Shown here in pieces: positions 3,831 to 22,535 of a DNA stretch of 58,326 nucleotides. The first letter of the stretch is position 1; each line of letters opens with the position of its first letter. The DNA is from Chloroflexota bacterium (GTDB lineage Bacteria; Chloroflexota; Anaerolineae; B4-G1). The notes under the pieces are model-generated. The model did no database searches and was not told the DNA's origin. It saw only the letters and a list, made by a program, of their open reading frames with translations. The stretch lies in contig JAAEPW010001336.1 in the NCBI GenBank assembly GCA_024232355.1, positions 1 through 58,326 of the forward strand. The letters run 5' to 3'. The translations under genes were made by a program, and so were the position numbers.

Positions 3831-4658
3831 TCAAAGCTCTGGTGGCGTACCACGGATGTTCTGCAATAGATCATGCTCGACTGTCAGTCTCATCAACTCG
3901 TCGAGGTTGTCTTCGGGACACTTGAGCAGATGCGCGAGTCTGTCCACAAACGCCGTCTCCTCGGACGTTAACTCTTTTGCTTCTTTGTAAAACAGGTTTG
4001 GACCTTGCCAATAGATTATCTCGTTGTTCAAGTTTGCGAACAGGTCGTGACACATGTTGCCCACGATGTAATCCATCCCCCACCAGATGTGAAAACCATA
4101 TTTCTGAGGATCGATCTCCCCCGCTCTGGCACGCTGCCAGACGTCCCACGCTAACTCAAACTCGTCAAAATCAATCCGTTGTACGTCTGGATCGACAGAC
4201 ATCCACCGGGCTTCTTGATCATTCCATATTTCCGATATCCAATGGTCATAGTGTTTCCCACTCTCTGGTGCCAGGTATCCGCCAAAGCCAACGCGCACAC
4301 GCGCCGGGATGCCTTGGGATTTCACCATTGAGACCAGGAGCATGGCGTGGAACCGGCAGGAGAGGACCAGTCTTTCTGCTGGCTCTCTCTCCATCGTCAA
4401 ACCCTGTGGGTTCCTGGCTACCAACTCATTCAACATGTCGTTGACTGAATAAAAGTCGGCATCTTCTCTGGTCCTGCCCTCTGGCAAGACGTCGGTGTAC
4501 TGTTTTACTTCTACCGGATGGATCAGTTGTGTCTTGACGAGCTTGCACAGATCCTCAAGGGACTCGGGTAGCTCGGCGTACAAGTACGCAAACTCGCCGG
4601 GGTCCGTGTTCTTGCCGTACTGTTGATAATGATTCATCGCCTCACTTTTTGCCAGCAT
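3831..4658 (-). CDS. Transglutaminase-like (papain-fold) domain protein
   Basis: A 275-residue protein whose central part has the transglutaminase-like Cys-His-Asp triad: Cys in RLVLSCRFHAML, His in GKHYDHWISEIW and Asp in WMSVDPDVQ. The spacing and the Trp-rich His motif fit the family (also called transglut_core), whose bacterial members often act as proteases or amidases and not as cross-linkers. No signal peptide is visible. GAGGAGG lies 4-5 nt before the ATG at 4658, so the start is well supported. It is the first gene of a minus-strand run with the SDR and the C45 hydrolase, which suggests a shared small-molecule or peptide modification task; this is inference. Confidence 0.78.
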   Translation of the reverse strand: MLAKSEAMNHYQQYGKNTDPGEFAYLYAELPESLEDLCKLVKTQLIHPVEVKQYTDVLPEGRTREDADFYSVNDMLNELVARNPQGLTMEREPAERLVLSCRFHAMLLVSMVKSQGIPARVRVGFGGYLAPESGKHYDHWISEIWNDQEARWMSVDPDVQRIDFDEFELAWDVWQRARAGEIDPQKYGFHIWWGMDYIVGNMCHDLFANLNNEIIYWQGPNLFYKEAKELTSEETAFVDRLAHLLKCPEDNLDELMRLTVEHDLLQNIRGTPPEL

Positions 4659-5647: not shown

Positions 5648-6631
5648 ATGCGTGCTGATCGCTTACTTTCCATCCTATTGCTCCTCCAAGTCCGCCAACG
5701 AGTGACGGCGGGTGAGTTGGCCCAGCGGCTAGAAGTGTCTGAACGGACCATCTACCGCGATATGGACGCCCTGAGCAGCGCGGGGATTCCGGTGTTTGCC
5801 GAGCGCGGCCACGGCGGTGGCTGGGGGCTGGTAGACCGATATCGAACGGATCTGACGGGGCTCAACAAGCTCGAGATCGAGGCGCTCTTTCTCCAGCCCT
5901 CCGGCCTTCTGGCCGACCTGGGGCTAGACAAAGCCTCCACCACGGCCCTCATCAAGCTCCTGGCGGCGCTGCCCTCCACGCGCCGCCGTGACGCCGAGCA
6001 TGTGCGCCAGCGTATCCACGTGGACGGTGCTGGCTGGTTCCAGGCCAAGGAGAGCGTGCCCTTTTTGTCCACTCTGCAAGAGGCGGTCTGGCAGGAGCGC
6101 AAGCTGCAATTTTCCTACCAGCGCAGCGACGCCAAGGTCGTGGAGCGCCTGGTGGACCCCCTGGGTCTGGTGGTCAAGGGGAGCGTATGGTACCTGATCG
6201 CCGCCATCGAGGACGGGATGCGCACCTACCGCGTCTCTCGGATGCAAGAGGCACAGGTGACCGAGCAGCCATGCGTTCGCCCCAAGGGCTTTGACCTGGC
6301 GGCGCACTGGGAGGCGTCGGTCGTTCAATTCAAGGCCGATCTGCCCCGTTATCCCGCGACGCTGCGCATGACGTCAGACGTCGTTCCCCACATACACCGA
6401 TTGAGGTATACACAGGTCGAGGACGTGAGCGAGTCAGACGCGGACGGACGGGTGACCGTCTCCGTGCTGTTTGAGATGGAGGACAAGGCGTGCGAGTACG
6501 TACTCGGTTTTGGGTCGCAGATCGAGGTCATCGACCCGCCAGCGCTGCGCCAGCGGGTCATAGACATCGCGGAGAGCATTGTTGCCCTCTACACAAGACT
6601 TTCGAGGCTTTCTGAAACCTCGAAAGTCTGA
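5648..6631 (+). CDS. YafY-type transcriptional regulator (HTH_11 + WYL domain)
   Basis: A 327-residue regulator. Residues 1-60 form a DeoR-like winged helix with the recognition stretch LEVSERTIYRDMDAL. A GGWGL hairpin follows, as usual in this family. The middle and C-terminal part contain a WYL domain (VDPLGLVVKGSVWYLIAA, with the partner YRVSRMQ stretch) that binds ligands or nucleic acid ends. Family members regulate stress, DNA-damage and defence genes. GAGGA lies 5 nt before the ATG. The gene converges on the UvrA-fusion gene, with only 7 bp between stop codons. A hairpin repeat is embedded in its last codons. It might regulate the neighbouring repair-like operon, but nothing in the sequence proves this. 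Confidence 0.86.
   Translation: MRADRLLSILLLLQVRQRVTAGELAQRLEVSERTIYRDMDALSSAGIPVFAERGHGGGWGLVDRYRTDLTGLNKLEIEALFLQPSGLLADLGLDKASTTALIKLLAALPSTRRRDAEHVRQRIHVDGAGWFQAKESVPFLSTLQEAVWQERKLQFSYQRSDAKVVERLVDPLGLVVKGSVWYLIAAIEDGMRTYRVSRMQEAQVTEQPCVRPKGFDLAAHWEASVVQFKADLPRYPATLRMTSDVVPHIHRLRYTQVEDVSESDADGRVTVSVLFEMEDKACEYVLGFGSQIEVIDPPALRQRVIDIAESIVALYTRLSRLSETSKV
6596..6629. repeat. Variable-arm palindrome with TTTCTGAAA core (copy 1)
   Basis: AGACTTTCGAGG at 6596-6607 pairs perfectly with CCTCGAAAGTCT at 6618-6629, around the loop CTTTCTGAAA. It falls in the last codons of the WYL regulator, between two convergent genes, so it could act as a shared terminator or mRNA end-protecting hairpin. Related palindromes with other arms occur at 28537-28568 and 27658-27694. 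Confidence 0.6.
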
Positions 6632-6638
6632 ACGTCTG

Positions 6639-9600
6639 TTATAGTACCGACTGCAAGAACTGCCCTGTATAACTCTTTGTCACCTGCGCCACTTGCTCCG
6701 GTGTTCCCTGGGCGACGATGTGCCCGCCCGCGTCGCCGCCCTCCGGACCTATGTCGATAATCCAATCCGCCGTCTTGATCACGTCCAGATTGTGCTCGAT
6801 GATGATGACGGTGTTGCCTGCATCGGTCAGGCGATGGAGCACGTCCAGCAGTTTTTGGATGTCAGCAAAGTGCAGGCCGGTGGTCGGCTCGTCGAGGATA
6901 TAGACCGTGCGGCCCGTATCCGGGCGGCATAGTTCCTTGGCCAACTTGACGCGCTGGGCCTCGCCGCCGGAAAGTGTCAGCGCGCTTTGCCCCAACTTGA
7001 GGTAACCCAGGCCGACGTCGTGTAATGTCTGTAAGATGCGCGTGATCTTGTCGTGGTCGGCAAAGAACGTGCGCGCTTCTTCAATGTCCATATCCAGCAC
7101 GTCGGCTATGGATTTTTCTCGGTATTCGATCTCTAGCGTCTGGCGATTAAAGCGCTTGCCCTCGCAGTCGGAGCACGTTACCCAGACGTCGGGTAAAAAG
7201 TGCATCTCTATGCGCTTCCGGCCGTGCCCCTGGCAAGCCCCACATTGCCCTACCTTGGCATTAAAGCTGAATCGGTTCGCCTTGAACTTGCGGTCCTTGG
7301 CCTCGGGAGTGCTGGCAAACACCTTGCGAATCTCATCAAAGGCGCCGACGTACGTCCCCGGATTGGAGCGCGGTGTGCGCCCGATGGGGACTTGGTCGAT
7401 ATTGATCACCTTGTTCACCTGGTTCAATCCCTCAATGCTGCTGTGCGGCCCCGGCGTGCTCTCCGCGCCGTGTAGTGCGCGGGCCAGCGCAGGCGACAGA
7501 GTCTGGGCCACCAAGCTGCTCTTGCCCGAGCCACTGACGCCAGTGACGCACGTCATCAGGCCCAGAGGGAAGCGTGCGTCTACCTCCTTCAGGTTGTGCA
7601 GCCTTGCTCCGGTGAGCGTTAACCAGCTCTGTGGTTCCCGCCGTTCCTTCCCATTAGGGGATGCGACGTGCAGATTGCCGCTCAGGTACTGCCCGGTCAG
7701 TGATGCGGGGTCTGCCATCACCTCCTCTGGCGTCCCGGCAGCGATGATCTCACCGCCCAGCGTCCCCGCACCGGGCCCCAGGTCGATCAGCCAATCGGCG
7801 GCCCGCATTGTATCCGTGTCGTGCTCGACGACGACGACGGTGTTACCCTCGTCCCGCAGTTGGGTCAACGTGTTCAACAACGCCTTGTGGTCGCGCGGGT
7901 GCAGGCCGATGGACGGCTCGTCGAGCACGTAGAGCAGCCCTGTCAAGCCGCAGCCCAGTTGGGTAGCCAGCCGGATACGCTGCCCCTCGCCGCCAGAGAG
8001 CGTCGGCGCGGGCCGGTCGAGGGCCAAATAGTGCAGCCCCACGTTGAGCAGGGATGCCAGGCGGTGGTCAAGCTCTACGACGACCTCGTGGGCGATCTGG
8101 CGCTGCTCGGGCGTCAGCCTGTGGGACAAGCTGGTGATCCATTGGTGTACTCGGGCCAACGTCATCGATGCGACCTCGGGAAAGCGTGTGCCGCCAACAG
8201 TGATGAAGCGAGCATCGGCGCACAGCCGTTCGCCGCCGCAGGTGGGGCACGGCCGCTTCCTCATGAACCCCATCAGACCCTCGCGTGCTCTCTCCGAGTC
8301 TGTCCGTTGCAGGAGACGCTTGATGTTGTTCACCGCCCCCTGGGCCGGGCGCTCAAAGCTGATGGAACGGCCTCGCTTTTTCATATCATAGGTCCAACTG
8401 ATGATTTCGTCACCAGTGCCGTAGAGGGCCGCGTCCCGGAACGCCTGAGGAAGCTCGCGCCATGGTAGTTCGAGGTCCACATGCATTACGTCCGCCAAGG
8501 CGAACAGTTCGCTCCGCATCCAATTCCCCGAGGGCTTTACCTTGCGCAGTTCACCGTACCAGGGCGATGCCCCGTCGAGCAAGGAGAGGTCTGGATCGGT
8601 GACGATCAACTCGGGATCGACGCTGAGCTTGACCCCCAGCCCGTTGCAATCGGAACACATCCCGTCGGGATTGTTAAAGCTGAACAGCGCTGGCGATAGC
8701 TCGAAAAAGAAAATGTTGCAATGGGGGCAGACTGTGTGCTGGCTGAGCAGCACCTCTTCCTCACCCTCTAACACGACGGTGAGATAGCCGCCGCCAGCCT
8801 GAAGGCCGGTCTCGGCGGCGTCAAAGATGCGATTGTGAAATTCGGTTTGCCCATTTTCGGGAACGATCAAATTCTCGACGATCCATTCGATGGTGTGCGG
8901 CTCTGTTTCTGCCAGCGAGACACTGGTGGTACTTGGATCGAGTATTTCGCCATCGATACGAACTTTGTGGTTGTTGCGCCGTGCTTGCTCCAGGACGTCT
9001 TTGTGGGTTCCCTCACGGGCACGCACGATGGGCGCTAATAGTTGGAAGCGTGTGCCTGGTACTAGAGCAGACAGTTGATCGGCAATGCGCCGCGCCGTCT
9101 GCGGCTTGATACCACGTCCGCATTGGGGGCAGTGGCGGGTACCGACGCGGGCAAAGAGCACGCGCAGATAATCTTGAACCTCGGTGACCGTGCCCACCGT
9201 CGAGCGTGGATTGCGGCTGACGCTGCCCTGTTCGATGGCGATGGTGGGCACCAACCCCAGAATGTGATCGACCTGCGGTTTTTCCATCTGCCCCACTAGC
9301 CGGCGAGCCAAGGTCGAGAGGCTGCCCACGTAGCGCCGCCGCCCTTCAGCGTAGAGGGTGTCAAAAGCCAGGGATGATTTGCCGCTGCCGCTGACGCCGG
9401 TGATGACGGTAAACTTGTCTTGGGGGATCGTCACGTCGACGTTCTTTAGATTGTGCTGCCGCGCGCCGCGAATGAGGATGGCATCGGCATATTCTTCCTT
9501 CAGCCCTCCATGTTCGTGAGATGGACGTTCCGAGGGGGTGGGGAGGACTGGTTGTGCGGCTTGAAAAGCGGCCAACCGGTCACTGTCGGCGGGGCGTAGG

Positions 9601-10556
9601 TTTTCGGCGTCGACGGTCTCTGTTTCCTCAAATCCTTGATGCCACGCTGACCAGTGAGCGATCCACTCTGGAACGCGGAACTGTTTCACCCGATCGTTGG
9701 ATGGGATATAAGGTTTCAGATCCAAGATCGGCGTTTCATTGAACGCATCCACACCGGCAAGTTCGACGATTCCGTGCTCATGATCTACGCTCACGATTCG
9801 GGCCGTGGTCAATCCAATCGGATTGGGCCGTACGGGCGAGCGGGAGGCAAACACCCCCGTCACTGGCGCGTTTTCATAAGGCGGTTTGTTGTGGGTTGCT
9901 CGTCGGAAACGGTCGCCGTCGAGACGATGAAACCACCACAGCACCCGCGCGTGGCTGAAATGCTCCAGGTTTTTCAGGGCCGGGATATAAGGTTCTTGAA
10001 TGTGCAACAGTACCCCACCATCCCCACGCCGGACGTATCCTACCGGGAGGATTTCGAACGAATTCGCCTCACCACCTATGGGAATAGATCGATTCTCTTC
10101 CAACCGGTGCCTTTCCTCGGGAACCCATTCGGGCCAATCGGCCATCCATTCGGGGATTCGGGCGTCCTTGACCCGATCCTCAACCGGCATATGCGCTTTC
10201 AAGTCCAGAATCGGTGTGCCATCGAATGCGTCAATGTTGGTGATCTCGACGATTCCACGCTTGTGATCCACGTTCAACACCTCTGCGGTGGTCAGCCCAA
10301 TCGGGTTGGGCCGCATCGGCGCGCGCAAGGCAAACACTCCCGAGATTGGCGCCTCGTCGTAGGGCGGCTGGGTTTGGGTCGTCGCGCGGTGTTCGTCTCC
10401 CTGAAACTCGCTAAACCACCAAAAAACCTGCACGTGGCTAAAATGCTCCAATTGTTTCAGTGCCGGAATACAAGATTCGCTAATTTCCAAAAAGGTCTTT
10501 TCACCGTCTCGCCGCAAATATCCCACCGGCGACACCTCGAATGTTTTGTTAGTCAT
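6639..10556 (-). CDS. Tandem TsaA (TrmO-like) domains fused to an UvrA excinuclease ATPase
   Basis: A 1305-residue fusion. Residues 1-150 and 165-310 are two TsaA/TrmO-like domains, each keeping RPNPIGLTT (82-90 and 243-251) and TPILDLK (114-120 and about 275-281). From about residue 356 comes a full-length UvrA of 950 residues. It has Walker [10 protein letters not shown] at 387-395, a zinc-finger pair CPHC/CSDC before and after FSFNNPDGM, signature LSGGEGQR with Walker [10 protein letters not shown], a second Walker [12 protein letters not shown], a second zinc pair CGAC/CSDC, and LSGGEAQR with YILDEPTTG. UvrA scans DNA for bulky lesions in nucleotide excision repair; TrmO uses SAM to methylate t6A37 of tRNA. 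The UvrA part is divergent ([13 protein letters not shown]), so it may be a specialised paralogue. AGGAGA precedes the ATG, which overlaps the upstream hydrolase stop by 4 nt (ATGA). Confidence 0.9.
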
Positions 10557-11362
10557 AAATTCTCCTGGACAAAGAATGATCTGACGACCGGGAATACGCG
10601 GTCGATTTGGGTAAATTCTTGGTCGTGAGTCAAGTCTTGAACGATTTCAATTTTTACGTTGGCTGCGTCCAAAGCGTCGCGGTTGGCTTTTATCCAATCT
10701 ACGACATGTTTGTTCCTGGTTCCTGCCAACAGCAGGGTGGGGCAGCCGACCTCGCCAGGCTCGATGCTGGGCCAATCGCGCATGGCCCGGAGGCAAGTGA
10801 CCAACGAGGGGATTTGTCCCTTGATCTTGCCATTTTTCTTCAAAGGGACGGTGCCCTCCTGGGCCGCCTGTATCACGGGTGCCCACCGTTTCAGGAAATC
10901 GTCGATGAACTTGTCGAACGCCTCATCCACCGCCGGGCCAAACGGAACGCCGATCATGGCAATGGCGGTCACTCGATCTGACCAAGCGCCCAGGTACCGG
11001 GCAATGTTGCCCCCTAGGCTAAAACCCCACACCGCGAATCGCTCCACGGCGCAGGCATCTGCTACGTTGTTCACGTCCTGGCAGATCATTTCGATGGCAT
11101 AATCGGCGACGTCAACCGAGTGGTCACTATCGCCAGTTCCACAAAGATCGACCGCAATGACCGTGAAATTGTTCTGCAGCTGCTCGACGTAGCCTGCCTT
11201 GTGCCAGTCCTGCCGTGTCTTTCCGGCACCGTGCAATAATATCAGCGCCGGGCCACTGCCGGTGACGTCGTAGGCGATGCGCGCACCATTTGTTGACGTG
11301 CCAAAGTGTGTGCTTTTATCTTTTGATCTCAATACTCTATCACTCTGGGAAGCTTTTTCCAT
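10553..11362 (-). CDS. Alpha/beta hydrolase
   Basis: An alpha/beta-hydrolase of up to 269 residues. The oxyanion block is LILLHGAGKTRQDW, the strand-turn is VIAVDLCGTGDSD, and the nucleophile elbow is GFSLGG. A likely acid is in the LLLAGTRNKHVVD region, and the His is in DLTHDQEF. It should be a cytoplasmic esterase, amidase or epoxide-hydrolase-like enzyme; the substrate is unknown. The ATG at 11362 lies inside the end of the DUF4332 gene and has no clear ribosome binding site. A TTG at 11332 overlaps that gene's stop as TTGA and may be the true start. Its own stop overlaps the UvrA-fusion start, so the three genes are translationally linked. Confidence 0.8.
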   Translation of the reverse strand: MEKASQSDRVLRSKDKSTHFGTSTNGARIAYDVTGSGPALILLHGAGKTRQDWHKAGYVEQLQNNFTVIAVDLCGTGDSDHSVDVADYAIEMICQDVNNVADACAVERFAVWGFSLGGNIARYLGAWSDRVTAIAMIGVPFGPAVDEAFDKFIDDFLKRWAPVIQAAQEGTVPLKKNGKIKGQIPSLVTCLRAMRDWPSIEPGEVGCPTLLLAGTRNKHVVDWIKANRDALDAANVKIEIVQDLTHDQEFTQIDRVFPVVRSFFVQENL

Positions 11363-12012
11363 ATTTCAGCACTAGCGGCAATATCTTCCGCTGTGGGCAT
11401 GGCTGCCTTTGTGATTTTTTGTTCCTCGTTGACCTCACGCAGATTTGCACATAATTCTTCTGGCGAACAGTCGGCTAGTTTTCCAAGGGTATCAGTCCCT
11501 GCCTCATAGATAACACGTGCAAAAGTCGGACCAACATAACTTGCCCTTGACAAATCGGCTAGTTTCACCAATTCTAGCAGTGCGTCATCGGCTACACCCG
11601 TCAATGCGGATAACTCGGCTCGATTTTGCTTGGATTTTGCTCGTTCGAAGAGTTGCTTGGTTTGCTTGATGCCCACCGCCGCTAACCGCTCGACGTGTTC
11701 AGTGTCAACGTTGGGGAACTTGACGAGGGGGACCGGTTTCGGCGTATAAACGTTTATCCGCCGTCTCAATATGGTGAGATATTCTTGAGGTATTCCTGAT
11801 TCCTGTGCAAGCTGTTCGAGCTTTTTCTTGGACTTGGACCGGTTCGCCAAGTTTTGGAGATTTGTAATTCCTATAGCCTCCAGTATTGCAAATCGCTCGG
11901 ACGTTTTTTCGCCCAATACCTTTTCACTCGGTAAAAGCCTGCCGGTTTCTAGAATATGTTTAAATTCTGCAAGGCTGAATTGTTCCAGATCAACGTGGTA
12001 TTGTTCCGACAT
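11329..12012 (-). CDS. DUF4332 (helix-hairpin-helix) protein
   Basis: A 227-residue cytoplasmic protein with repeated helix-hairpin-helix-like units, such as EAIGITNLQNLANRSKSK, AAVGIKQTKQLFERAKSK and GTDTLGKLADCSPEEL. This is the pattern of DUF4332 proteins, which are usually taken to bind nucleic acids non-specifically. Its exact role is unknown. AGGAG lies 5 nt before the ATG at 12012. It sits between a ClbS-like protein and an alpha/beta hydrolase in a tight minus-strand operon, 8 bp after the former and overlapping the latter, so a DNA-binding helper role in a repair or protection system is plausible. Confidence 0.75.
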   Translation of the reverse strand: MSEQYHVDLEQFSLAEFKHILETGRLLPSEKVLGEKTSERFAILEAIGITNLQNLANRSKSKKKLEQLAQESGIPQEYLTILRRRINVYTPKPVPLVKFPNVDTEHVERLAAVGIKQTKQLFERAKSKQNRAELSALTGVADDALLELVKLADLSRASYVGPTFARVIYEAGTDTLGKLADCSPEELCANLREVNEEQKITKAAMPTAEDIAASAEIWKKLPRVIEY

Positions 12013-12020
12013 ATTTACTC

Positions 12021-12533
12021 CTATGCTGATTTTTCCTTGACCCTGAACCCCTTGCGGATTTCCTTCCTGGCCCAGAGATAATGGCTGCTAGTGGCAGAAA
12101 CAAAGTAGGTGCCCAGTGTGTTCTTTTTTGTCCACACAAATTGACCCGCCGTGAACATCTCTTCGCTGGACAGTCCCTGGATGACGCCCATAATCTCACA
12201 GTGCGACGCCTGGAACTGCTCCAATATCTCGTCCAGCGGCCGGTCACGGTGCTTTTCATAGATGTGTTGGTTGAGCTGCGGTGTCTGGTTCCACTTGAAC
12301 CCTGGCGCTGGAAGTTCGGGGGTTTCTCCGCGCAGCCCGGTCGCGTGCCATCCCAATACCATCTGTTCCCATTCAACCAGGTGGGCCAACATGTCCTTGG
12401 TGGACCATTCGCCGACTATTCCCGGCTCGGTCATTTGTTCAGGCGTCAAGGTTTCCAGAAACGTCTCCAACGCTCCCCGTTCCTTCTCGATTGCGGCTAA
12501 AAGATCAGATTTGCTCGTAGGTCTAGGCATCAT
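12021..12533 (-). CDS. ClbS/DfsB-family (DUF1706) four-helix-bundle protein
   Basis: A 170-residue protein that matches the ClbS/DfsB family in length and motifs. It has an N-terminal KSDLLAAIEKERGALETFL helix, then VGEWSTKDMLAHLVEWEQM, then LPAPGFKWNQTPQLNQHIYE, then a final SHYLWARKEIRKG helix. ClbS from colibactin producers protects DNA by hydrolysing the electrophilic cyclopropane of the toxin; other family members lie in the wider DinB superfamily and have unknown tasks. AGGAGA precedes two consecutive ATG codons (12533 and 12530), and the second has the better spacing. It is 11 bp from the TsaA gene and 8 bp from the DUF4332 gene, inside the operon that ends with the UvrA fusion. Confidence 0.82.
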   Translation of the reverse strand: MMPRPTSKSDLLAAIEKERGALETFLETLTPEQMTEPGIVGEWSTKDMLAHLVEWEQMVLGWHATGLRGETPELPAPGFKWNQTPQLNQHIYEKHRDRPLDEILEQFQASHCEIMGVIQGLSSEEMFTAGQFVWTKKNTLGTYFVSATSSHYLWARKEIRKGFRVKEKSA

Positions 12534-12544
12534 TCATCTCCTAA

Positions 12545-13045
12545 TCATTGTGCACTTGTATCTTGGTCTTCTAATTTCGGACCCTCGTCCGGTGCCCACT
12601 CTGGCCAATCCGACGCCCAATCGGGGACGTTCACATTTTGCAACCGGTCGCAAACCGGGATGTACGGCTTGAGGTCGAGCACGGGCGTGTCGTCAAAGGT
12701 GTCGATGCTGGTGATTTCGACCTCCCCGGCGTCGTGGTCGACGTTCAGCACCTTGGTCGTGCTCAGCCCAATGGGATTCGGGCGGACGGGTGAGCGGCAA
12801 GCAAACATGCCGAGGGTCGGAGCATCATAAGGCGCGTGCTCGCTTTGGGTGATCCCACGATACACGTCATCCTGATACTCGCTGAACCACCAGAATACCT
12901 GCACGTGGCTGAACTGTTCCAACTCTTTCAGCGCGGGCGCGTATGCTTTGAGGATTTCTATGTACGTTCTTCCGTTATCTCGTCTGACATGTCCGACCGG
13001 GAAAATCTCAAAAGCTGTATTTCGTTTCAATGTTTGATTACTCAC
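12545..13045 (-). CDS. Stand-alone TsaA/TrmO-like protein
   Basis: A 166-residue single TsaA domain, clearly paralogous to both domains at the front of the UvrA fusion. It shares [40 protein letters not shown] and the WPEW ending. TrmO enzymes use SAM to form m6t6A37 in tRNA-Thr and work as dimers. This short version lacks the extra C-terminal domain seen in E. coli TrmO. Translation starts at a GTG (13045) with AAGGAGA 9 nt before it. The gene is 14 bp after the AraC regulator gene and 11 bp before the ClbS-like gene. Whether it methylates tRNA or uses the fold on another substrate cannot be decided from sequence. Confidence 0.85.
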   Translation of the reverse strand: MSNQTLKRNTAFEIFPVGHVRRDNGRTYIEILKAYAPALKELEQFSHVQVFWWFSEYQDDVYRGITQSEHAPYDAPTLGMFACRSPVRPNPIGLSTTKVLNVDHDAGEVEITSIDTFDDTPVLDLKPYIPVCDRLQNVNVPDWASDWPEWAPDEGPKLEDQDTSAQ

Positions 13046-13059
13046 TTGATCTGTCTCCT

Positions 13060-13977
13060 TTACTGTTTATCATGTGCTTGGGATTTTACGGCAAGAGCAG
13101 GGATTTTGGACGCGCGCTCAATTTCGTCAATCGGAATCAGTATCTCGCTCTCAGAATCTGGATCGTCTGGACCTTTGTACCGCTCGCCGTAAAATTCGAT
13201 CTGCAATGGAGCGGCTGTCGAGTGGTCCGACTTTGGCAGCCAGGTCTGGTAGACATAATCGAGCGTCATACCTACATCCTTTGATGGTCCTTTGTGGATA
13301 AACTTGGCATATTTTAGCGGCTGAATCGTTTTTCCCACCAGTGTTGGTGGTATGGCGTCGAGCGAATCGACCGCCACACCGATCATGAAAAAGATGCTCT
13401 GTGGGTCTCCCGCAAGGGTAAAGAACGATACACCGTAATATTGTTGTGGTTTCAGTTGCTTTGGTATAGATTCGATCTCACTGCTGAGTTGTTCCCACAG
13501 TTCCGTTACGATGTCTGTTTCCCCCTTGACGCGGGAGGCCAGCCCGACGAGATGGATTTTGTCCAACTCGACCAACTCGGGTTTCAGATAATCACCTTTG
13601 TTTATGTGTTTGATGTATTCGAGCGTGGCTTCCAACTTGACTAACTGGGGCAAGATTTTGCTCTTTTTCACCTGGTTGGGAAGCATCCCAAACATCCTTC
13701 GGAACGCCCGCGAGTATGTTTCGGGATTGTTGAACTGGTACTCGAATGCAACGTCAATGATGCGCTTTCCTGATTCTACCAGTTCCCTGGCGGATTCTGA
13801 CAGTCGCCTGCGCATAATATAGTCATAAGGGCTGTGGCCAATGACGCGGTTGAACGTGCGAGAAAAGTGGTACACGGAATAGCCTACTGCGTCGGCGACA
13901 TCTTGAATAGAAATGGGCGCTTTCAAGTGTTGCTCGATAAATTGCACAGCCTGGTATACGCTTTCTAGATTCGACAT
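13060..13977 (-). CDS. AraC-family regulator with GyrI-like ligand-binding domain
   Basis: About 305 residues. The N-terminal 105 or so are an AraC/XylS double helix-turn-helix (ISIQDVADAVGYSVYHFSR, then IIDVAFEYQFNNPETYSRAF). Residues 150-300 are a GyrI-like / multidrug-effector-binding fold (KIHLVGLASRVKGET, with a repeated beta-alpha-beta pattern ending SEILIPI), like Rob or the BmrR ligand domain. Such regulators activate drug or stress genes when they bind a small hydrophobic compound. I start at the ATG at 13977. A GTG at 14007 overlaps the upstream stop as GTGA and would add 10 residues. It is the second gene of the operon that ends with the UvrA fusion and is its best candidate regulator. 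Confidence 0.87.
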   Translation of the reverse strand: MSNLESVYQAVQFIEQHLKAPISIQDVADAVGYSVYHFSRTFNRVIGHSPYDYIMRRRLSESARELVESGKRIIDVAFEYQFNNPETYSRAFRRMFGMLPNQVKKSKILPQLVKLEATLEYIKHINKGDYLKPELVELDKIHLVGLASRVKGETDIVTELWEQLSSEIESIPKQLKPQQYYGVSFFTLAGDPQSIFFMIGVAVDSLDAIPPTLVGKTIQPLKYAKFIHKGPSKDVGMTLDYVYQTWLPKSDHSTAAPLQIEFYGERYKGPDDPDSESEILIPIDEIERASKIPALAVKSQAHDKQ

Positions 13978-14003
13978 AAAGGTGTCCGCCTGACTGGTAC
14001 GTA

Positions 14004-14516
14004 TCACTCGGATTTTTCGATCGGAACATAAACATCAAGCATAGATTCCTCGATTTTATCCAGTCCCTTGAATCTATGGTCATAGTATTGGATGCCATAT
14101 TGGTGGGACACGTAGTATCCCGATGCCGGTATCCAATCGAAATAGATCAACTTGCTCCAGTCGGAAGTAATTTCTTCAGCTTGCAAAGTGAATACTGCAT
14201 ATTGTGTAGCTGGCAGAATTTTGACCACACATTCGATAGGCACATCCTCCAGTTTTTCAACCCGCACCCCGATGAACACCTCAAAAAGACCTTTTTCTGG
14301 GGTTTCTTCGGTTTCAATGTGAATTTCCAAGAGCGCGTTGGACTCTGCGATGTGCTTTATGGCATCGGCATTCTGGCCGTGAAAGGCAAAGAACCTCTTC
14401 CACAAAAGACCGATTTCATTGTCCTCGCTCCAGCCAGTGGTCTGACTGAATGGATCGCCATAAAAACTCATACCTACCACCAGCCATTCCTTTGCAGTCA
14501 CTATTTTGGGGTCCAT
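14004..14516 (-). CDS. GyrI-like small-molecule-binding protein
   Basis: A 170-residue stand-alone GyrI-like domain (KIVTAKEWLVVGMSF, internal FEVFIGVRVEK and a VYVPIEK ending). The overall beta-alpha-beta-beta pattern is seen twice. It resembles the ligand domain of the AraC regulator encoded next. Stand-alone GyrI-like proteins include the gyrase-protecting SbmC and enzymes that hydrolyse cyclopropanoid genotoxins of the yatakemycin/CC-1065 type; many have no known ligand. I start at the ATG at 14516 because AAGGGAG lies 7 nt upstream; the longer frame from 14552 has none. It is the first gene of the seven-gene run, 26 bp before the regulator. Confidence 0.75.
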   Translation of the reverse strand: MDPKIVTAKEWLVVGMSFYGDPFSQTTGWSEDNEIGLLWKRFFAFHGQNADAIKHIAESNALLEIHIETEETPEKGLFEVFIGVRVEKLEDVPIECVVKILPATQYAVFTLQAEEITSDWSKLIYFDWIPASGYYVSHQYGIQYYDHRFKGLDKIEESMLDVYVPIEKSE

Positions 14517-14562
14517 AAACTTGCTCCCTTTATGCAAATGCACGTTATCCATTGATGCGTTG

Positions 14563-14568: not shown

Positions 14569-15347
14569 TCAGAATGGTGATGCTTGTGCTTGATTCTGCT
14601 TGCTCAATTTGGGCCGAATTTGATCCGGTTCTTGGCTCAAACTGACGATTCTTGCAGTGTCCAAAGTACTATAATCGGAATGCAGGTTTTGTCAAAATGT
14701 TCGAATAGAATTAAAAGTGAGATTCTTTCGACCTGTGCAATTAAAACTTGGACTTGGCAGTTGCAGGCTTGTGGTATTATGTCCGGCAAAACGTGCGGGA
14801 GAAAAAGGGCGGGTTAACAACTACAAGGCCAAGGTACGAGTTGAGATCGCAGCATGCGAGGATGACAATGGATGATGTCCTGTGAACTGAAACCATATCG
14901 GGTAATGAAAAGGGGGATAGGCTCTTGGGCCATCCTCCTTTTAACACCTCAATCTCAGAATTTACTTGAAACCAACTCGCCATCGCGCAGTCCATAAACG
15001 CAGTCGGCTTGTGCTCCTTGCTTTGACAGCGTCAAAGATGTTAGGTCCACTCGTTCTTCCAATTGGGCCAGATTGGTGATCGTGAATGGTACGGCTCAAG
15101 TGGCGGGTGATGGCATCGTTGGAAATGACTACAGGCAGCACATTGGGTTGGGCGAGTCTGGTTCCAGAACGCGCATAATGTCGTGCATAGTAAAGGGGTT
15201 GATACCTGGTGAACAAGATGCTACTTTACTTGGGAAAAGGTTGTTGGATTACACGGTGCCTGTCAGGAAAAAGAGAGGCGCGCACAATGTTGACTTTGGT
15301 GGCAAAAGTGTCCAGTAGATCGCTGTTCGATTTGGGATGTTGGTGCT
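14569..15347. other. 780-bp intergenic region with a decayed coding remnant
   Basis: No intact gene is supported here. On the minus strand, between about 15310 and 14960, short coding-like pieces in three different frames follow each other: PFTMHDIMRVLEPDSPNP, then VLPVVISNDAITRHL, then TITNLAQLEERVDLTSL and a CVYGLRDGEL tail ending at a stop near 14965. This pattern suggests a frameshifted, decayed gene of unidentified family. The part from 14569 to 14950 shows nothing I can name. Confidence 0.35.
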
Positions 15348-17855: not shown

Positions 17856-18215
17856 TTATTTTGACGTTGGAGAACTCTTGGGGTGTTTGAGGCCATTTGT
17901 GACGCGCACACCAAATTGTTCCAGAATTTCTTTCACTCGGGCCAACTCTTGGGCCGGAACGATGGCCAATGCCCGATCTTGGGTTGGAAAGGGCGTGAAA
18001 TGTACTTGTAACTCGGGATGGTTTGCCAGTTCGTCCATGGTGGCTTGATCGCGGAACTCGATCAACGTGAGTGTTTCGGCGGCGGCGTGACCGTAATAGC
18101 CGCCCCAAGCTTTGATCTGTTCGACCAATTCGCTTGGTAAAGTCCCCCGGTGCAGTTTGCCCAATTCCTTTAACATGCGGACGGTTTTTTTCTTGCTTCC
18201 ACCTGCCTGCCCCAC
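17856..18215 (-). CDS. C-terminal part of a helicase-associated protein, out of frame with its N-terminal part
   Basis: This frame (119 residues from a GTG at 18215) has the shared C-terminal domain of helicase-associated proteins: LPSELVEQIKAWGGYYGHAAAETLTLIEF, then LAIVPAQELARVKEILEQFGV. The same pattern ends the neighbouring SWIM protein (IRDQLTSWWTNYGQVRIYENLTVIEF). Reading the frame upstream of the GTG gives KKWLLTPASVGQAGG, a block expected in the middle of such a protein. It is therefore best seen as the end of the gene at 18170-20227, displaced by one frame at the A7 run at 18237-18243 (T on the plus strand). As a separate protein it is unlikely. Confidence 0.7.
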   Translation of the reverse strand: MGQAGGSKKKTVRMLKELGKLHRGTLPSELVEQIKAWGGYYGHAAAETLTLIEFRDQATMDELANHPELQVHFTPFPTQDRALAIVPAQELARVKEILEQFGVRVTNGLKHPKSSPTSK

Positions 18216-20227
18216 TGATGCCGGCGTGAGCAGCCATTTTTTTCTTTGCCCGGTATTTCTTTTGCCAGCCGCGAGAGCCGTTCGCGCAAATGCAGACTGG
18301 GGACGGCGTGGATCGGGCGCACGTTTCCATCTTTTTGGACGATGACACTATCGTCAGCGGCCTTGGGATGCGCGTCCGAGACAGCGGGAAAAGTGTCCTG
18401 TTCGATCAGTGCGAGGGTCAGAGGTTTTTGTTGCTCGCTGTTGAGCAGCGCGACCTCGGGCGCGACGGTTCGGGCCAAGTGTTTGCCGGTGCGTGAGTCG
18501 TCTATCAGCGTCGCCAGTAGATCTGCGTCGGCTGCTTGCAACAGACTAACACCGGTGCGAAAGATGATCCGCTCGTGATGGGCGGCCCACTCGTCCAGTG
18601 AGCGGCGCACGTTTTGTGGCAGTTCGGTGTCACAGTTTTCTTCCAAAAAGCCGATCACCTTGGTCACGTCAATGCCCAATTGTTGCGCCTGGTAGACCGA
18701 GTCTCGTGACACACGGTATTCAAACACGCCCAGGTCGGCACGTTCTCTCTCGGCGAACATGTCTAATCGAGCCAGCACTGCTGTGCTTATCGGGCCCATT
18801 GCCATCAGTTGAAAGTTGGGCTGGATGATGAGTTTGCCTGCTTTATCTTGATCTGTAGATTTGTTTTGCTGTTCCAATGTTTTCAGACCCAACATCACCT
18901 GGCCTGCCGAGGTCAGCCGCAGTCCTCGTAACCGCTTTTCGCTATAGCCCAATTCCACTGCTCCGACTTGGTACAGAAAGCCGGTCAGGCAATTTTCCAC
19001 AAACTCGATTTCGAGCCTCTCTAGTTTTTCGAGCAGCGATTTGGTGTCTCCATAGTAGCGGCCATAGGAGTAGCTATAGTAGCGATGACCGCGATATCTC
19101 TCAATTTCGCTGTGTTCGGGGAACAGGAAATTCATCTCTTGTATCTGAATATCTTCCGCGAGTTCCTCAGGATCCGACCAGGTATCGGCAGGTAGTGCTT
19201 TCAGGGCAGAAAGAAGCGTTTGCCGGGCGTGGGAGAGACGTGGGCTATACTTTGCGATTGCGTTTGGTACTTTTCCTATCGCGTCAAAGCGTGCCCAGGA
19301 TTCCAGGCAGACGCTGGCCTGCTCGATCTGGCTCCGACTCCAGAAATCGGGTATGCGTGCAGCGTCTTGTTCAGTCAGGCGCAGCATACCCCGATCTCTG
19401 TGTATCAGCCCGCACGTTTCCAGCAGCTTGCACAACATGTCGAGGTGTCCGGTTTCGCGCTCGTTCGCTGCGCTTTTTAAAAGCGGGTCGGGTCTCAACA
19501 GGGCGTTGTTGACCGCTTTGAGCCAGCGCTTGGCGACGAGGCCGTTCTGGATGAGGCTCACCTCGTTGCGCCGCACAAAGTCCCAATACAGGTATAAATC
19601 TCGCAATAGCAGCGTGGGCGAACCGGCATCAATCTGGTCAGGCTGCCAATCGGAGCATCTGGGTGGGATTGGCTCCGGTTCTGGCAGATAACGCCGGATA
19701 AAGTCGGGAACATGCAAGATCTGGGCTGGATGGAATTGTATTTTGAAGGGTTGTTTCCCCGAGTTCATAGCCACTCCCCGGCTAAAGACCAACCCGTGAT
19801 AGGTTAGGCGAGCGACGGTATCTTCAAAGACGAGAGATTGGGCGCGTTGCGGGTCTCCGTTGTACACGCCTCTGTCGTACGCGACGCCGGGGGTGTAATA
19901 GCGGTAGAGAGGCTCCTCTGGTTTTTCCTGTTCTGTGGCCTCTGTGGCCAGTCCAGCCCGGATGATTTCGCGTTTAAAGCTCCTGGTGGCGACGGGACCA
20001 CTGTGCAACAAGAGTCGATTCAGGATGACCTGTTCTCCCTCGTTCAATTGCTCCCAGGAGGCCTGGATACGCGCCTCTGTAAAAAACTCGGCCTGAAGTT
20101 TGGGCAGCAGGTCCTTTTTGTACAGCAGCTTGCGACCTGTCGTGACCTGGATACCAGCGACTTGCGCCATTTCTCCCAGTGTTTTATAGTGATAGGATTC
20201 GAGCAGCTCTTTGATCTTGTCCGTCAT
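18170..20227 (-). CDS. Helicase-associated (XPB/Ssl2-like, Helicase_C_3) protein, frameshifted near its 3' end
   Basis: About 685 residues in this frame. The region AGKLIIQPNFQLMAMGPIS through LGVFEYRVSRDSVYQAQ and NVRRSLDEWAAHHERI is the XPB/Ssl2-like helicase-associated domain. The N-terminal half is a helical region with winged-helix-like stretches (KTLGEMAQVAGIQVTTGRK). The last 14 or so residues (NGCSRRHQWGR) do not fit, because the true C-terminus lies in another frame (17856-18215). I start at the ATG at 20227, one nt after the stop of the SWIM gene, with GAGGT before it. It probably works with the XPB helicase encoded two genes upstream. Whether the break is real, a homopolymer sequencing error or a programmed shift is open. 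Confidence 0.8.
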   Translation of the reverse strand: MTDKIKELLESYHYKTLGEMAQVAGIQVTTGRKLLYKKDLLPKLQAEFFTEARIQASWEQLNEGEQVILNRLLLHSGPVATRSFKREIIRAGLATEATEQEKPEEPLYRYYTPGVAYDRGVYNGDPQRAQSLVFEDTVARLTYHGLVFSRGVAMNSGKQPFKIQFHPAQILHVPDFIRRYLPEPEPIPPRCSDWQPDQIDAGSPTLLLRDLYLYWDFVRRNEVSLIQNGLVAKRWLKAVNNALLRPDPLLKSAANERETGHLDMLCKLLETCGLIHRDRGMLRLTEQDAARIPDFWSRSQIEQASVCLESWARFDAIGKVPNAIAKYSPRLSHARQTLLSALKALPADTWSDPEELAEDIQIQEMNFLFPEHSEIERYRGHRYYSYSYGRYYGDTKSLLEKLERLEIEFVENCLTGFLYQVGAVELGYSEKRLRGLRLTSAGQVMLGLKTLEQQNKSTDQDKAGKLIIQPNFQLMAMGPISTAVLARLDMFAERERADLGVFEYRVSRDSVYQAQQLGIDVTKVIGFLEENCDTELPQNVRRSLDEWAAHHERIIFRTGVSLLQAADADLLATLIDDSRTGKHLARTVAPEVALLNSEQQKPLTLALIEQDTFPAVSDAHPKAADDSVIVQKDGNVRPIHAVPSLHLRERLSRLAKEIPGKEKNGCSRRHQWGRQVEARKKPSAC

Positions 20228-20228
20228 C

Positions 20229-22535
20229 TCAGACCTCATCCGTGTGTTTGGGCGTATAGCCCGCCTTTTCCAGCATCTCTGTCAAGGGGGCAACGCTTTC
20301 CTCTCGAACGATCACCAGGCGAGGGGAGATTTCGGCGACGAGGAACTCGTCCAGAGGGGTGACGGCTCGCATTTCGGTCAACGCATAGTCGTCGCCAAAT
20401 TCAATGACGGTAAGGTTCTCATAGATGCGTACCTGACCATAATTCGTCCACCAAGAGGTCAGTTGGTCGCGGATCGCGTCCGGCATAGGGATAGGCAATA
20501 GGTGTTCCCAATTGTCCAAGAGTTCGGATAACGCGGCACCGGCTTCAAAGGTTTCATAGACGACCTGGGAATCCAACTGGTACGTAAAGCGTTCGGCGGT
20601 GGCTGTCTCCAGACGTGCGATTTTGTTCAACAGGTTATGCGCCTCGGCCGGAATCGCGGAGGGAGCGACGTTGATGGCGTGCGCGTCCGTTTTTATGGCT
20701 TTTTCTGGGGATATGGTGTGGGCCTGTTGGGTCGCGTGAGGGGGCGCGTCTGGAACGTCTACGCGATCCCAAAATAGATCGGCCAGGCCGTGGAATCGGA
20801 CTGCGGCTAGTTCGCCGTTCTCGAAACCCAGGTCGGCCAGCCCCAGCCCGTGCAGTGGTCCGGCGATGATTTGTTGGACAAAGTGCCCTTGCGCCGAGTT
20901 CCAATCTTTTGCATCCGTGGGGGACAGGGGTTGTCCATCGCTGGCAGAAGCCATGTACCAGCTTCCGATACCATTGTGGTCCCGGTACTTGCTCCACACT
21001 GTTTGATTGAACTGGGGCCAGATGGCGCGTAGTGGATGGAATAGGTCTTGCAACGCTATCCATTTGCCATCAGGTAGAGAGGACAGGGCGTGCAGGGCCA
21101 ACCGGCGAAAACGGGTCAGGTCGGCACGCAGGTTCTCTGGTTTGTGGTAACGCCGGAGCATACGCCGGAGTTGTAAGCGGTGGTTGGTTCGCAATACTTC
21201 CCACAGCGCACTCCAATTTTCCATCTGGAAGAACGTCCGGGCCAGGATGGCGCGTTGGGTGAGTTTGTTCAGGCGTAGGAATTGATCCTTTGTCTCTGTC
21301 CAAACCGTCACAGGGTTGCCGGGTTGAAATATGCCGGCAGCTGTCAGCAGGGAAAAGATGAATTCGATCTGTCCCTCGTCACCAGCCACGGGAGCCAGCC
21401 GTTCAATCGCTTCGTTGGGCAAGGATCGGGTGGGTGGTGGAACGATGAGGGCCAGGTCTGATGAATATCGTTGCAAGAGACCTTGTTTCTTGGCGAGTGC
21501 GAGTTCTTCCGGGACATAGTCCCATTTTTCTAGCTCGCTGTGGAACTTTTCCAGCCGAGGGCGTGGCATAGGAGGGCGTAGTGGTGTGGCGGATTGTTCC
21601 AGCAGCAGAACGATTTGGATGGCAGCCTGGATGAACGGATAGGGATCGGCCAGCCGGATATCGCTGACGCTCGGCTGTGGGTGTGCGGCGGCCGGGATGA
21701 CGGTTCCCAAGATGGGCGGGAGGGACCGCAAAATGGCGCGGGGCACGAAATCGCTCTGGGGTGGGTAATCGCCTTCGTTGCCTGGCAGCGCGAGACCCGC
21801 TTTCCACAGGTGACTCGCGTAGGTGCCAACTTTTCGGTAGCTTTTGAGATCGCCCCACGCACTCGCGGCTCTTTCCAGTTCATCTTCTGGGATGTCGTCC
21901 TTTTCTCCCATCAGGACCATTGCCCGGAGTACGTTTTGATGTTCTGCGTCCAGTTGGCGGATCGCTTGGAGGACATCGCGGGGGGCGGTGATGTGCGTGG
22001 CGATCTGTTGGGCAATGTCCGCTTTGCGGTTTCCCTTGATCTTCCAACCGCGTTTCTTGGCCATCTGGCGCAAATCTTGGAGTTTGATCTCTTGCAACCC
22101 TTTCCACAATTCTTGCTCGTCTGCTTGATGGCGGTCTGCAAAAGAGAACGTTAGCCAGTGTGGGAGTTGCTCTGGCTGGTTCGTGGGGGGAGGGGCAACG
22201 GGTATGACCTCAATGGGATATTCTTTGCTGGGGGGCAAGGGTGTATTTTCGATGGCGAAATCGCCGGGCGATTGGATCCACTTGAGTAGTACCGCGCCGA
22301 CGTGTTTGCAGTAGCCGCCCCAGTTGTAGGGGCAGCTACATTGGGCGTGGATGCCGTCCGGTTCGACGTCAATTTCCACATAGTATACCCGCGAGCCATT
22401 TATTTGGGCTGTGAGTGTTTTACCAGCGCGAACGGGGTTCTCTATCGCGTTGACGTATCCGCGTGCGCGACGCATACTCTTGGCTTTGAGCGCACCTCGC
22501 AAATCATCTTGTGTAAGGGTTTCCAAAGTTGGCAT
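20229..22535 (-). CDS. SWIM zinc-finger protein with SAP-like and helicase-associated regions
   Basis: A 768-residue protein. Residues 66-78 are a SWIM zinc finger (CSCPYNWGGYCKH: C66, C68, C76, H78), predicted to bind DNA or protein. Around residues 125-165 a SAP-like helix pair appears (LQDLRQMAKKRGWKIKGNRK). A long helical middle follows, and the last 110 residues match the helicase-associated C-terminal domain (IPMPDAIRDQLTSWWTNYG, TVIEFGDDYALTE). It starts 3 bp after the XPB stop and ends 1 nt before the next gene's ATG, so it is surely co-transcribed with XPB. It is likely a DNA-engaging partner of XPB; the biochemical task is unknown. Confidence 0.8.
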   Translation of the reverse strand: MPTLETLTQDDLRGALKAKSMRRARGYVNAIENPVRAGKTLTAQINGSRVYYVEIDVEPDGIHAQCSCPYNWGGYCKHVGAVLLKWIQSPGDFAIENTPLPPSKEYPIEVIPVAPPPTNQPEQLPHWLTFSFADRHQADEQELWKGLQEIKLQDLRQMAKKRGWKIKGNRKADIAQQIATHITAPRDVLQAIRQLDAEHQNVLRAMVLMGEKDDIPEDELERAASAWGDLKSYRKVGTYASHLWKAGLALPGNEGDYPPQSDFVPRAILRSLPPILGTVIPAAAHPQPSVSDIRLADPYPFIQAAIQIVLLLEQSATPLRPPMPRPRLEKFHSELEKWDYVPEELALAKKQGLLQRYSSDLALIVPPPTRSLPNEAIERLAPVAGDEGQIEFIFSLLTAAGIFQPGNPVTVWTETKDQFLRLNKLTQRAILARTFFQMENWSALWEVLRTNHRLQLRRMLRRYHKPENLRADLTRFRRLALHALSSLPDGKWIALQDLFHPLRAIWPQFNQTVWSKYRDHNGIGSWYMASASDGQPLSPTDAKDWNSAQGHFVQQIIAGPLHGLGLADLGFENGELAAVRFHGLADLFWDRVDVPDAPPHATQQAHTISPEKAIKTDAHAINVAPSAIPAEAHNLLNKIARLETATAERFTYQLDSQVVYETFEAGAALSELLDNWEHLLPIPMPDAIRDQLTSWWTNYGQVRIYENLTVIEFGDDYALTEMRAVTPLDEFLVAEISPRLVIVREESVAPLTEMLEKAGYTPKHTDEV

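What the first reader, a model, noticed from the sequence alone, without database searches (positions are those of the whole stretch)
6639..10556. Two TsaA/TrmO-like domains fused in front of a full-length UvrA
The frame is continuous for 1305 codons, and each TsaA domain keeps RPNPIGL and TPILDLK. I know of no described UvrA with a tandem SAM-using tRNA-methylase-type front. It could join lesion recognition with a SAM-dependent reaction, or use the fold as a ligand or dimer module: TrmO is a dimer, and two linked copies would make an internal one.
Basis: partly seen in the sequence, partly recalled or inferred. Interest (0 to 1): 0.75.

Follow-up and report, generated by a model that had tools for sequence, protein, structure and literature searches.

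The report
DNA-repair ATPase with built-in methyltransferase pair
This gene joins two copies of a methyl-donor-binding type of domain to a complete bacterial DNA-damage sensor (UvrA); relatives from many bacterial groups keep the residues needed for one shared site between the two copies and often sit next to drug-sensing regulators, so it may be an undescribed, inducible defence against DNA-binding chemicals.

Summary
It lies on the minus strand (10556 to 6639): 1305 aa, two TrmO_N (TsaA) domains before a full-length UvrA. It is no assembly join: 242 proteins matched the N-terminal 350 residues, and the architecture recurs in isolate genomes. I found no paper describing it. It is an extra paralogue: 25 of 27 carrier genomes also hold a full ordinary uvrA.

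New here: in TrmO the AdoMet pocket takes Arg and Asp from one subunit and Lys from the other. In 103 of 103 non-redundant tandem proteins, domain 2 keeps Arg and Asp/Glu and domain 1 keeps Lys. The mirror site is complete in 18 of 103. The tandem is therefore most likely an internal pseudo-dimer with one selected composite site.

Multidrug-sensor-type MerR/AraC-GyrI regulators lie near 20 of 33 fusion loci and 0 of 20 ordinary uvrA loci. In 118 of 137 fused UvrA parts the UvrB-binding segment is shortened. A reverse-order fusion (short UvrA, C-terminal TsaA) seems to have arisen separately.

Best reading: an inducible UvrA-type ATPase with a built-in class VIII methyltransferase site, protecting against DNA-binding or DNA-damaging chemicals. 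AdoMet use and substrate are inferred, not shown.

The parts
6639..10556 (-). TsaA-TsaA-UvrA fusion gene, 1305 aa
10077..10556 (-). TsaA/TrmO_N domain 1 (about residues 1-160); donates Lys120 to the family-wide composite site
   Evidence: AlphaFold model
9612..10076 (-). [not shown]
9489..9611 (-). linker (about residues 316-356), low confidence in the model up to residue 353
6639..9488 (-). full-length UvrA (residues 357-1305) with both ATPase sites and the zinc cysteines
8772..9101 (-). UvrB-interaction domain (PF17760, residues 486-595), full length here, shortened in most relatives; keeps the residues aligned with E. coli R216 and E222
8274..8618 (-). UvrA DNA-binding/insertion domain (PF17755, residues 647-761)
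10197..10199 (-). codon of Lys120 (aligned with AF0241 Lys122 / E. coli TrmO Lys136, the residue from the other subunit)
9840..9842 (-). codon of Arg239 (aligned with AF0241 Arg82 / E. coli TrmO Arg92)
9747..9749 (-). codon of Asp270 (aligned with AF0241 Asp111 / E. coli TrmO Asp125)
10553..11362 (-). alpha/beta hydrolase, overlaps the fusion start by 4 bases (ATGA)
11329..12012 (-). DUF4332 protein (helix-hairpin-helix match), same putative operon
12021..12533 (-). DUF1706 / DinB-superfamily protein, same putative operon
12545..13045 (-). stand-alone TsaA protein of the same subfamily (58% identical to the aligned fusion part), same putative operon
13060..14007 (-). AraC-type regulator with GyrI-like effector-binding domain, same putative operon
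14004..14552 (-). GyrI-like/Cass2 small-molecule-binding protein, first gene of the putative operon
14668..14695 (-). sigma-70-type promoter-like match, 11 of 12, ahead of the putative operon (consensus match only)

Best explanation
A chemically inducible UvrA paralogue with an internal TrmO-type (class VIII) pseudo-dimer. (1) The two TsaA domains pair as the two subunits of TrmO do, so that Arg239 and Asp270 of domain 2 and Lys120 of domain 1 make one AdoMet-type site; only this composite site is kept across the family (in this protein the mirror site R78/D109 + K281 is intact too). (2) A GyrI-domain regulator senses a small molecule and turns the operon on. (3) The UvrA part finds DNA that carries a bound or covalently attached compound, and its ATPase cycle brings the TsaA pair onto it. 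(4) The TsaA pair uses AdoMet to methylate the DNA-bound compound or the lesion, and UvrA then releases it, largely without UvrB. Status: the fusion and the conservation pattern are shown; pairing, AdoMet binding and induction are inferred with good support; DNA targeting follows from the UvrA family; methyl transfer and its substrate are the least certain step.
Against: Gln25, which in TrmO also contacts AdoMet, lies in a loop missing from both domains, and Q25A strongly lowers TrmO function, so the ligand could differ. The AlphaFold models (pLDDT 79, pTM 0.78) were not tested for domain pairing or ligand, and no fold-search row covers domain 1 alone convincingly. The window protein keeps both sites, so the selection argument comes from relatives. 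It also keeps a full UvrB domain with R576 and E582 (aligned with R216 and E222), and the E222 equivalent is kept in 14 of 15 fused proteins inspected, so UvrB dependence is not excluded. Leaving out the four fusion loci with under 0.9 kb upstream, 9 of 29 show no GyrI regulator; L029 has a Fpg-like glycosylase instead.
Confidence: 0.42

Rival explanations
1. AdoMet sensor: the TsaA pair binds AdoMet without transferring a methyl group and gates the UvrA ATPase or DNA binding by methyl-donor state.
For: The conserved residues (Arg, Asp, Lys) bind the amino and carboxy groups of AdoMet, so they speak for binding, not for catalysis. The Gln loop is lost. A single site per chain suits a sensor.
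Against: The PPYE and RPNP motifs around the pocket are kept almost without change in domain 2 (109 tandem proteins), more than a bare binding site might need; the same subfamily exists as stand-alone proteins beside GyrI regulators, where there is no ATPase in the same chain to gate.
Confidence: 0.22
2. Drug-removal UvrA like Ecm16/DrrC, with the TsaA pair as a ligand- or target-recognition module that binds the drug rather than AdoMet.
For: Closest functional precedent: the UvrA-like self-resistance protein Ecm16 acts without UvrA, B, C or D (PMC10192343). GyrI regulators nearby. UvrB segment shortened in 118 of 137 fused parts.
Against: The TrmO residues for the amino-acid end of AdoMet are invariant or nearly so in proteins of many hosts, although drugs would be expected to differ between hosts.
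Confidence: 0.17
3. Two-function protein: a real tRNA t6A methyltransferase (TrmO) that happens to be tied to UvrA.
For: In 14 of 27 carrier genomes the fusion holds the only TrmO_N matches found (some carriers are MAGs and may be incomplete). The two stretches together score 174.4 bits against the TIGR00104 cut-off of 93.25.
Against: The Gln25 loop is absent; the other 13 of 27 have a further TrmO_N match outside the fusion; an inducible regulator and repeated joining to UvrA would be odd for a housekeeping tRNA step.
Confidence: 0.1
4. Lesion repair with UvrB: an ordinary NER front end for a special lesion class, TsaA only widening recognition.
For: The window protein keeps a full UvrB-interaction domain with R576/E582 and scores above the UvrA equivalog cut-off. 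The E222 equivalent is kept in 14 of 15 fused proteins inspected.
Against: The R216 equivalent is lost in 8 of the same 15, while 20 of 20 ordinary UvrA of carriers keep both; the segment is shortened in 118 of 137 and skipped in two more.
Confidence: 0.08
5. Assembly or annotation artefact.
For: None found.
Against: The same architecture occurs in many of the 242 matched proteins and in isolate genomes such as Clostridium tetanomorphum and the complete genome CP118523.
Confidence: 0.01

Closest known systems
UvrA of nucleotide excision repair (PRK00349/TIGR00630)
   Same: Full-length UvrA: both ATPase sites, zinc cysteines, DNA-binding domain; this member also keeps the UvrB-interaction domain
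   Different: Two TsaA domains in front; in relatives an extra paralogue beside ordinary uvrA; GyrI-regulator context; UvrB interface worn or shortened in most relatives
UvrA2 / Ecm16 / DrrC UvrA-like proteins
   Same: UvrA paralogue, probable defence against DNA-binding chemicals, tendency to lose UvrB contact (PMC10192343)
   Different: Ecm16 and UvrA2 lack the UvrB-binding domain altogether; the fused group is separate from the short UvrA paralogues sampled. No TsaA domain is mentioned in the passages I read.
TrmO/YaeB, class VIII AdoMet methyltransferase
   Same: Beta-barrel TrmO_N fold and the Arg/Asp + partner-Lys composite pocket residues
   Different: Two copies in one chain with one family-wide site; no Gln25 loop; fused to a DNA-binding ATPase
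GyrI-like small-molecule-binding proteins (BmrR, Rob, SbmC, YtkR7)
   Same: Neighbouring regulators and the first gene of the putative operon carry this domain; some family members hydrolyse DNA-alkylating antibiotics (PMC5684135)
   Different: Neighbours, not part of the fusion

Membership tests
UvrA (NER damage sensor) | score above the UvrA equivalog cut-off | tested here: met
   PRK00349 1288 bits, cut-off 1147
UvrA (NER damage sensor) | two ATPase sites, signature motifs, zinc cysteines | tested here: met
   Both Walker A (GVSGSGKSS), both LSGGE and LDEP and six CxxC pairs present; the twelve cysteines kept in 136-137 of 137 fused parts (the 137 were picked by an intact Walker A)
UvrA (NER damage sensor) | UvrB-interaction domain with R216 and E222 (E. 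coli numbering) | tested here: met
   Met in the window protein (R576, E582); in relatives R lost in 8 of 15 and segment shortened in 118 of 137
UvrA (NER damage sensor) | works with UvrB and UvrC in excision | not testable with these tools
   needs biochemistry or genetics
UvrA2 / Ecm16 type | no UvrB-binding domain and no zinc module 1 | tested here: not met
   Window protein has PF17760 and Cys476/479/610/613; the relatives in G301 and G171 do skip that part of the profile
TrmO (class VIII methyltransferase) | TrmO_N beta-barrel fold | tested here: met
   [not shown]
TrmO (class VIII methyltransferase) | Arg92, Asp125 and the partner subunit's Lys136 | tested here: met
   residues present as R239, D270, K120; that Lys120 really comes from the paired domain was not seen
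TrmO (class VIII methyltransferase) | Gln25 in the PRQ-type loop | tested here: not met
   loop absent in both domains and in the stand-alone operon copy; a Gln is there in 6 of 7 ordinary TrmO of carriers
TrmO (class VIII methyltransferase) | methylates t6A37 of tRNA | not testable with these tools
   needs biochemistry

The most novel reading that the evidence does not exclude
A UvrA-guided methyltransferase: the ATPase locates a drug- or lesion-bearing site on DNA and an internal class VIII pseudo-dimer methylates the DNA-bound compound or lesion, a resistance or repair chemistry that I know of for no UvrA-type protein, induced by GyrI-type drug sensors and evolved at least twice (N-terminal tandem; C-terminal single domain).
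Probability: 0.33. Interest if true: 0.9.

Novelty: new variant of a known kind. Interest (0 to 1): 0.74.

Why it matters
UvrA-like proteins are known as DNA-damage sensors and as antibiotic self-resistance factors, and TrmO as a tRNA enzyme. A scattered family that welds the two together, with one selected composite AdoMet-type site and drug-sensor-type regulators next door, suggests a form of chemical defence on DNA that sits in databases under names such as 'excinuclease ABC subunit A'. It also gives a natural test of the inter-subunit pocket of class VIII methyltransferases, because evolution has taken apart one of the two mirror sites repeatedly and spared the other. Carriers include cultured bacteria.

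Tried and rejected

Rows dropped: one search left out fronts of 290 residues or less and near copies at 80% identity or more (142 to 115; of the 120 listed proteins the eight single-TsaA ones fall out, and 103 remain after the identity filter). Only 120 of the 242 matches were available. Residues at R78 and D109 are uncertain where the domain 1 loop is deleted. Locus proteins were picked by a domain 2 motif; the 103 were not. Four of 14 members of the AraC-type cluster, lying away from the fusion, were left out. The regulator HMMs were built from the neighbours themselves; flanks were up to 8 kb for fusion loci and up to 5 kb for ordinary uvrA; L001, L003, L012 and L014 have under 0.9 kb upstream. 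The 33 fusion loci include L024 (a 332-aa frame without UvrA), L002 (frame broken inside UvrA) and L025 (single TsaA).

Full report
What is there. The reported stretch holds one gene on the minus strand, 10556 to 6639, 1305 aa. About residues 1-160 and 161-315 are TrmO_N (TsaA) domains, and residues 357-1305 are a full UvrA by the NCBIfam equivalog model, 1288 bits against a cut-off of 1147. UvrA chains of the PDB match the same part. The ATG follows AGGAG and overlaps the stop of the gene before it.

Surroundings. Seven genes run in the same direction with overlaps or short gaps. In order of transcription they are: a GyrI-like/Cass2 protein (14004-14552), an AraC regulator with a GyrI domain (13060-14007), a stand-alone TsaA protein (12545-13045), a DUF1706/DinB protein (12021-12533), a DUF4332 protein (11329-12012), an alpha/beta hydrolase (10553-11362) and the fusion. 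A promoter-like match of 11 of 12 lies at 14695-14668 (9 such sites found in the region against 5.8 expected, so weak evidence). A WYL-domain regulator (5648-6631, plus strand) converges on the fusion's end.

It is a family. A search with residues 1-350 against about 5.8 billion proteins gave 242 matches, 120 of them listed. A scan of the genome collection with a seven-sequence alignment gave 80 loci. In 32 of them an ORF holds the domain 2 motif used: 31 of these ORFs also hold a UvrA Walker A, one of them (L025) with a single TsaA domain and one (L002) broken later on; L024 is a 332-aa frame without UvrA. One further locus, L032, holds the fusion in a 1233-aa frame. Named carriers include Anaerolineae, Spirochaetes, Clostridium tetanomorphum, C. 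drakei, C. mobile, Natronincola, Robinsoniella, Eisenbergiella and Breznakia. It is scattered: counting the centre genome, tandem fusions were seen in 1 of 120 genomes of one class and 3 of 291 of another at the limits used.

It is an extra UvrA. Of 27 carrier genomes searched (one more was not held), 25 also hold a separate full-length ordinary uvrA of about 930-980 aa and at least 1346 bits; G003's best other match is cut by its contig's end and G018's is a 443-aa piece. In a quick tree of 79 UvrA parts, the 33 tandem and 7 single-TsaA fusions sampled fall in one group with full SH-aLRT support, with L106 inside on a long branch. The nearest outside row is an unfused UvrA of an Anaerolineae genome (L112); the other ordinary UvrA lie further out.

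The composite site. PMC4132733 (passages read) reports that AdoMet in TrmO-type proteins is held by Gln22, Arg82 and Asp111 of one subunit and Lys122 of the other (AF0241 numbering), and that R92A and K136A of E. coli TrmO do not restore m6t6A. The alignment with AF0241 (positions counted by hand from the printed alignment) places the last three at R78, D109, K120 in domain 1 and R239, D270, K281 in domain 2. Among 103 non-redundant tandem proteins out of the 120 listed, K120 is kept in 103, R239 in 103, and position 270 is D in 100 and E in 3. R78 is kept in 31, D109 in 29 (E in 11) and K281 in 34. The site of domain 2 Arg and Asp/Glu plus domain 1 Lys is complete in 103 of 103; the mirror site in 18; a site within domain 2 alone in 34; within domain 1 alone in 22. 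With locus proteins added (115 in all) the picture is the same. On the tree, R78, D109 and K281 need 4, 7 and 6 changes among 33 rows and the site A residues none. Domain 1 is otherwise the less conserved one (mean top-residue frequency 0.39 against 0.62), so its invariant Lys stands out. The eight single-TsaA proteins among the 120 keep all these residues, and so does the separate TsaA protein encoded just before one of them (P0033, which is the L025 protein); some of the eight may be cut short at the front. This pattern is what an internal pseudo-dimer with one selected site predicts. The window protein keeps both sites.

What speaks against a plain TrmO. The loop with Gln25 is missing in both domains and in the stand-alone operon copy. 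Of seven ordinary TrmO fetched from carrier genomes, six have a Gln there, in PRQ, PSQ or PIQ-like settings, and one (L143) does not. So AdoMet is the likeliest ligand, but not certain. In 14 of 27 carriers the fusion holds the only TrmO_N matches found, so a tRNA role is not excluded.

Context across the family. The flanking regulators group into MerR-GyrI (11 of 11 picked members confirmed by Pfam) and AraC-GyrI (10 of 10, the window's own included) types. With profiles of these, 20 of 33 fusion loci and 0 of 20 ordinary uvrA loci from carrier genomes have such a regulator; by coordinates 16 lie directly upstream on the same strand. Among stand-alone TsaA loci, 31 of the 45 without a UvrA fusion could be read by the motif used, and 9 of these 31 have such a regulator within three ORFs, for example in Holdemania, Paenibacillus and Blautia. 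GyrI-like proteins bind xenobiotics and some destroy DNA-alkylating antibiotics (PMC5684135, passages). One fusion (L029) follows a Fpg-like DNA glycosylase gene.

UvrB. The window protein has a full UvrB-interaction domain and keeps residues aligned with R216 and E222 (mutated as the UvrB interaction surface in PMC3025350, passages). Of 137 fused UvrA parts, 118 have only 60-109 residues where the window protein has 131, and 17 have 130 or more. In G301 and G171 the UvrB part of the profile is skipped altogether. All 20 ordinary UvrA of carriers keep R216 and E222; of 15 fused proteins inspected, 7 keep the Arg and 14 the Glu. The drift is towards independence from UvrB, as in Ecm16, which acts without UvrA, B, C or D (PMC10192343, abstract and passages), but the kept Glu speaks for caution.

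Second origin. L050 and L072 encode a short UvrA with one TsaA domain at the C-terminus. Their UvrA parts lie nearest to short UvrA paralogues (L114, L115), not to the fused group, whereas the short tandem fusions of G301 and G171 lie nearest to other tandem fusions. Joining TsaA to a UvrA-type ATPase thus probably happened at least twice, in opposite order.

Interpretation. I conclude that this is a new variant of UvrA-like protein: an inducible UvrA paralogue with a built-in class VIII pseudo-dimer, most likely serving defence against DNA-binding or DNA-damaging chemicals. The fusion, its family and the composite-site conservation are shown. Pairing, AdoMet binding and induction are inferred. 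Methyl transfer to a DNA-bound target is my preferred but unproven mechanism; AdoMet sensing and drug binding are the main rivals.

Noticed in passing
L050:5673-8540 and L072:2841-5648: Short UvrA (no UvrB-binding domain match) with a single TsaA domain at the C-terminus: apparently a separate fusion in reverse order.
   Followed up: yes
L106 (G023:C110:9000-13200): A 1143-aa UvrA with an N-terminal extension of about 325 aa that looks transglutaminase-like by eye (not scanned); its UvrA part branches inside the TsaA-UvrA group on a long branch.
   Followed up: partly
L116 (G003:C309) and L117 (G001:C471): Open frames of 1563 and 1699 aa that seem to hold two UvrA units in one chain.
   Followed up: no
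L025:7116-11122: A separate TsaA gene overlapping the start of a single-TsaA-UvrA gene: a split form of the tandem.
   Followed up: partly
L029:7035-7970: A Fpg/H2TH-type DNA glycosylase-like gene directly upstream of a TsaA-TsaA-UvrA fusion.
   Followed up: no
window 3831-4658, minus strand: Transglutaminase-like protein near the fusion operon; a transglutaminase-like front also seems present on the UvrA of L106. Possibly chance.
   Followed up: no
window 12545-13045, minus strand: Stand-alone TsaA protein lacking the Gln25 loop of TrmO, in the same putative operon as the fusion; may partner it or share its substrate.
   Followed up: partly
window 18170-20239 and 20229-22535, minus strand: Two neighbouring large proteins with Helicase_C_3 domains, the second with a SWIM zinc finger match.
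   Followed up: no
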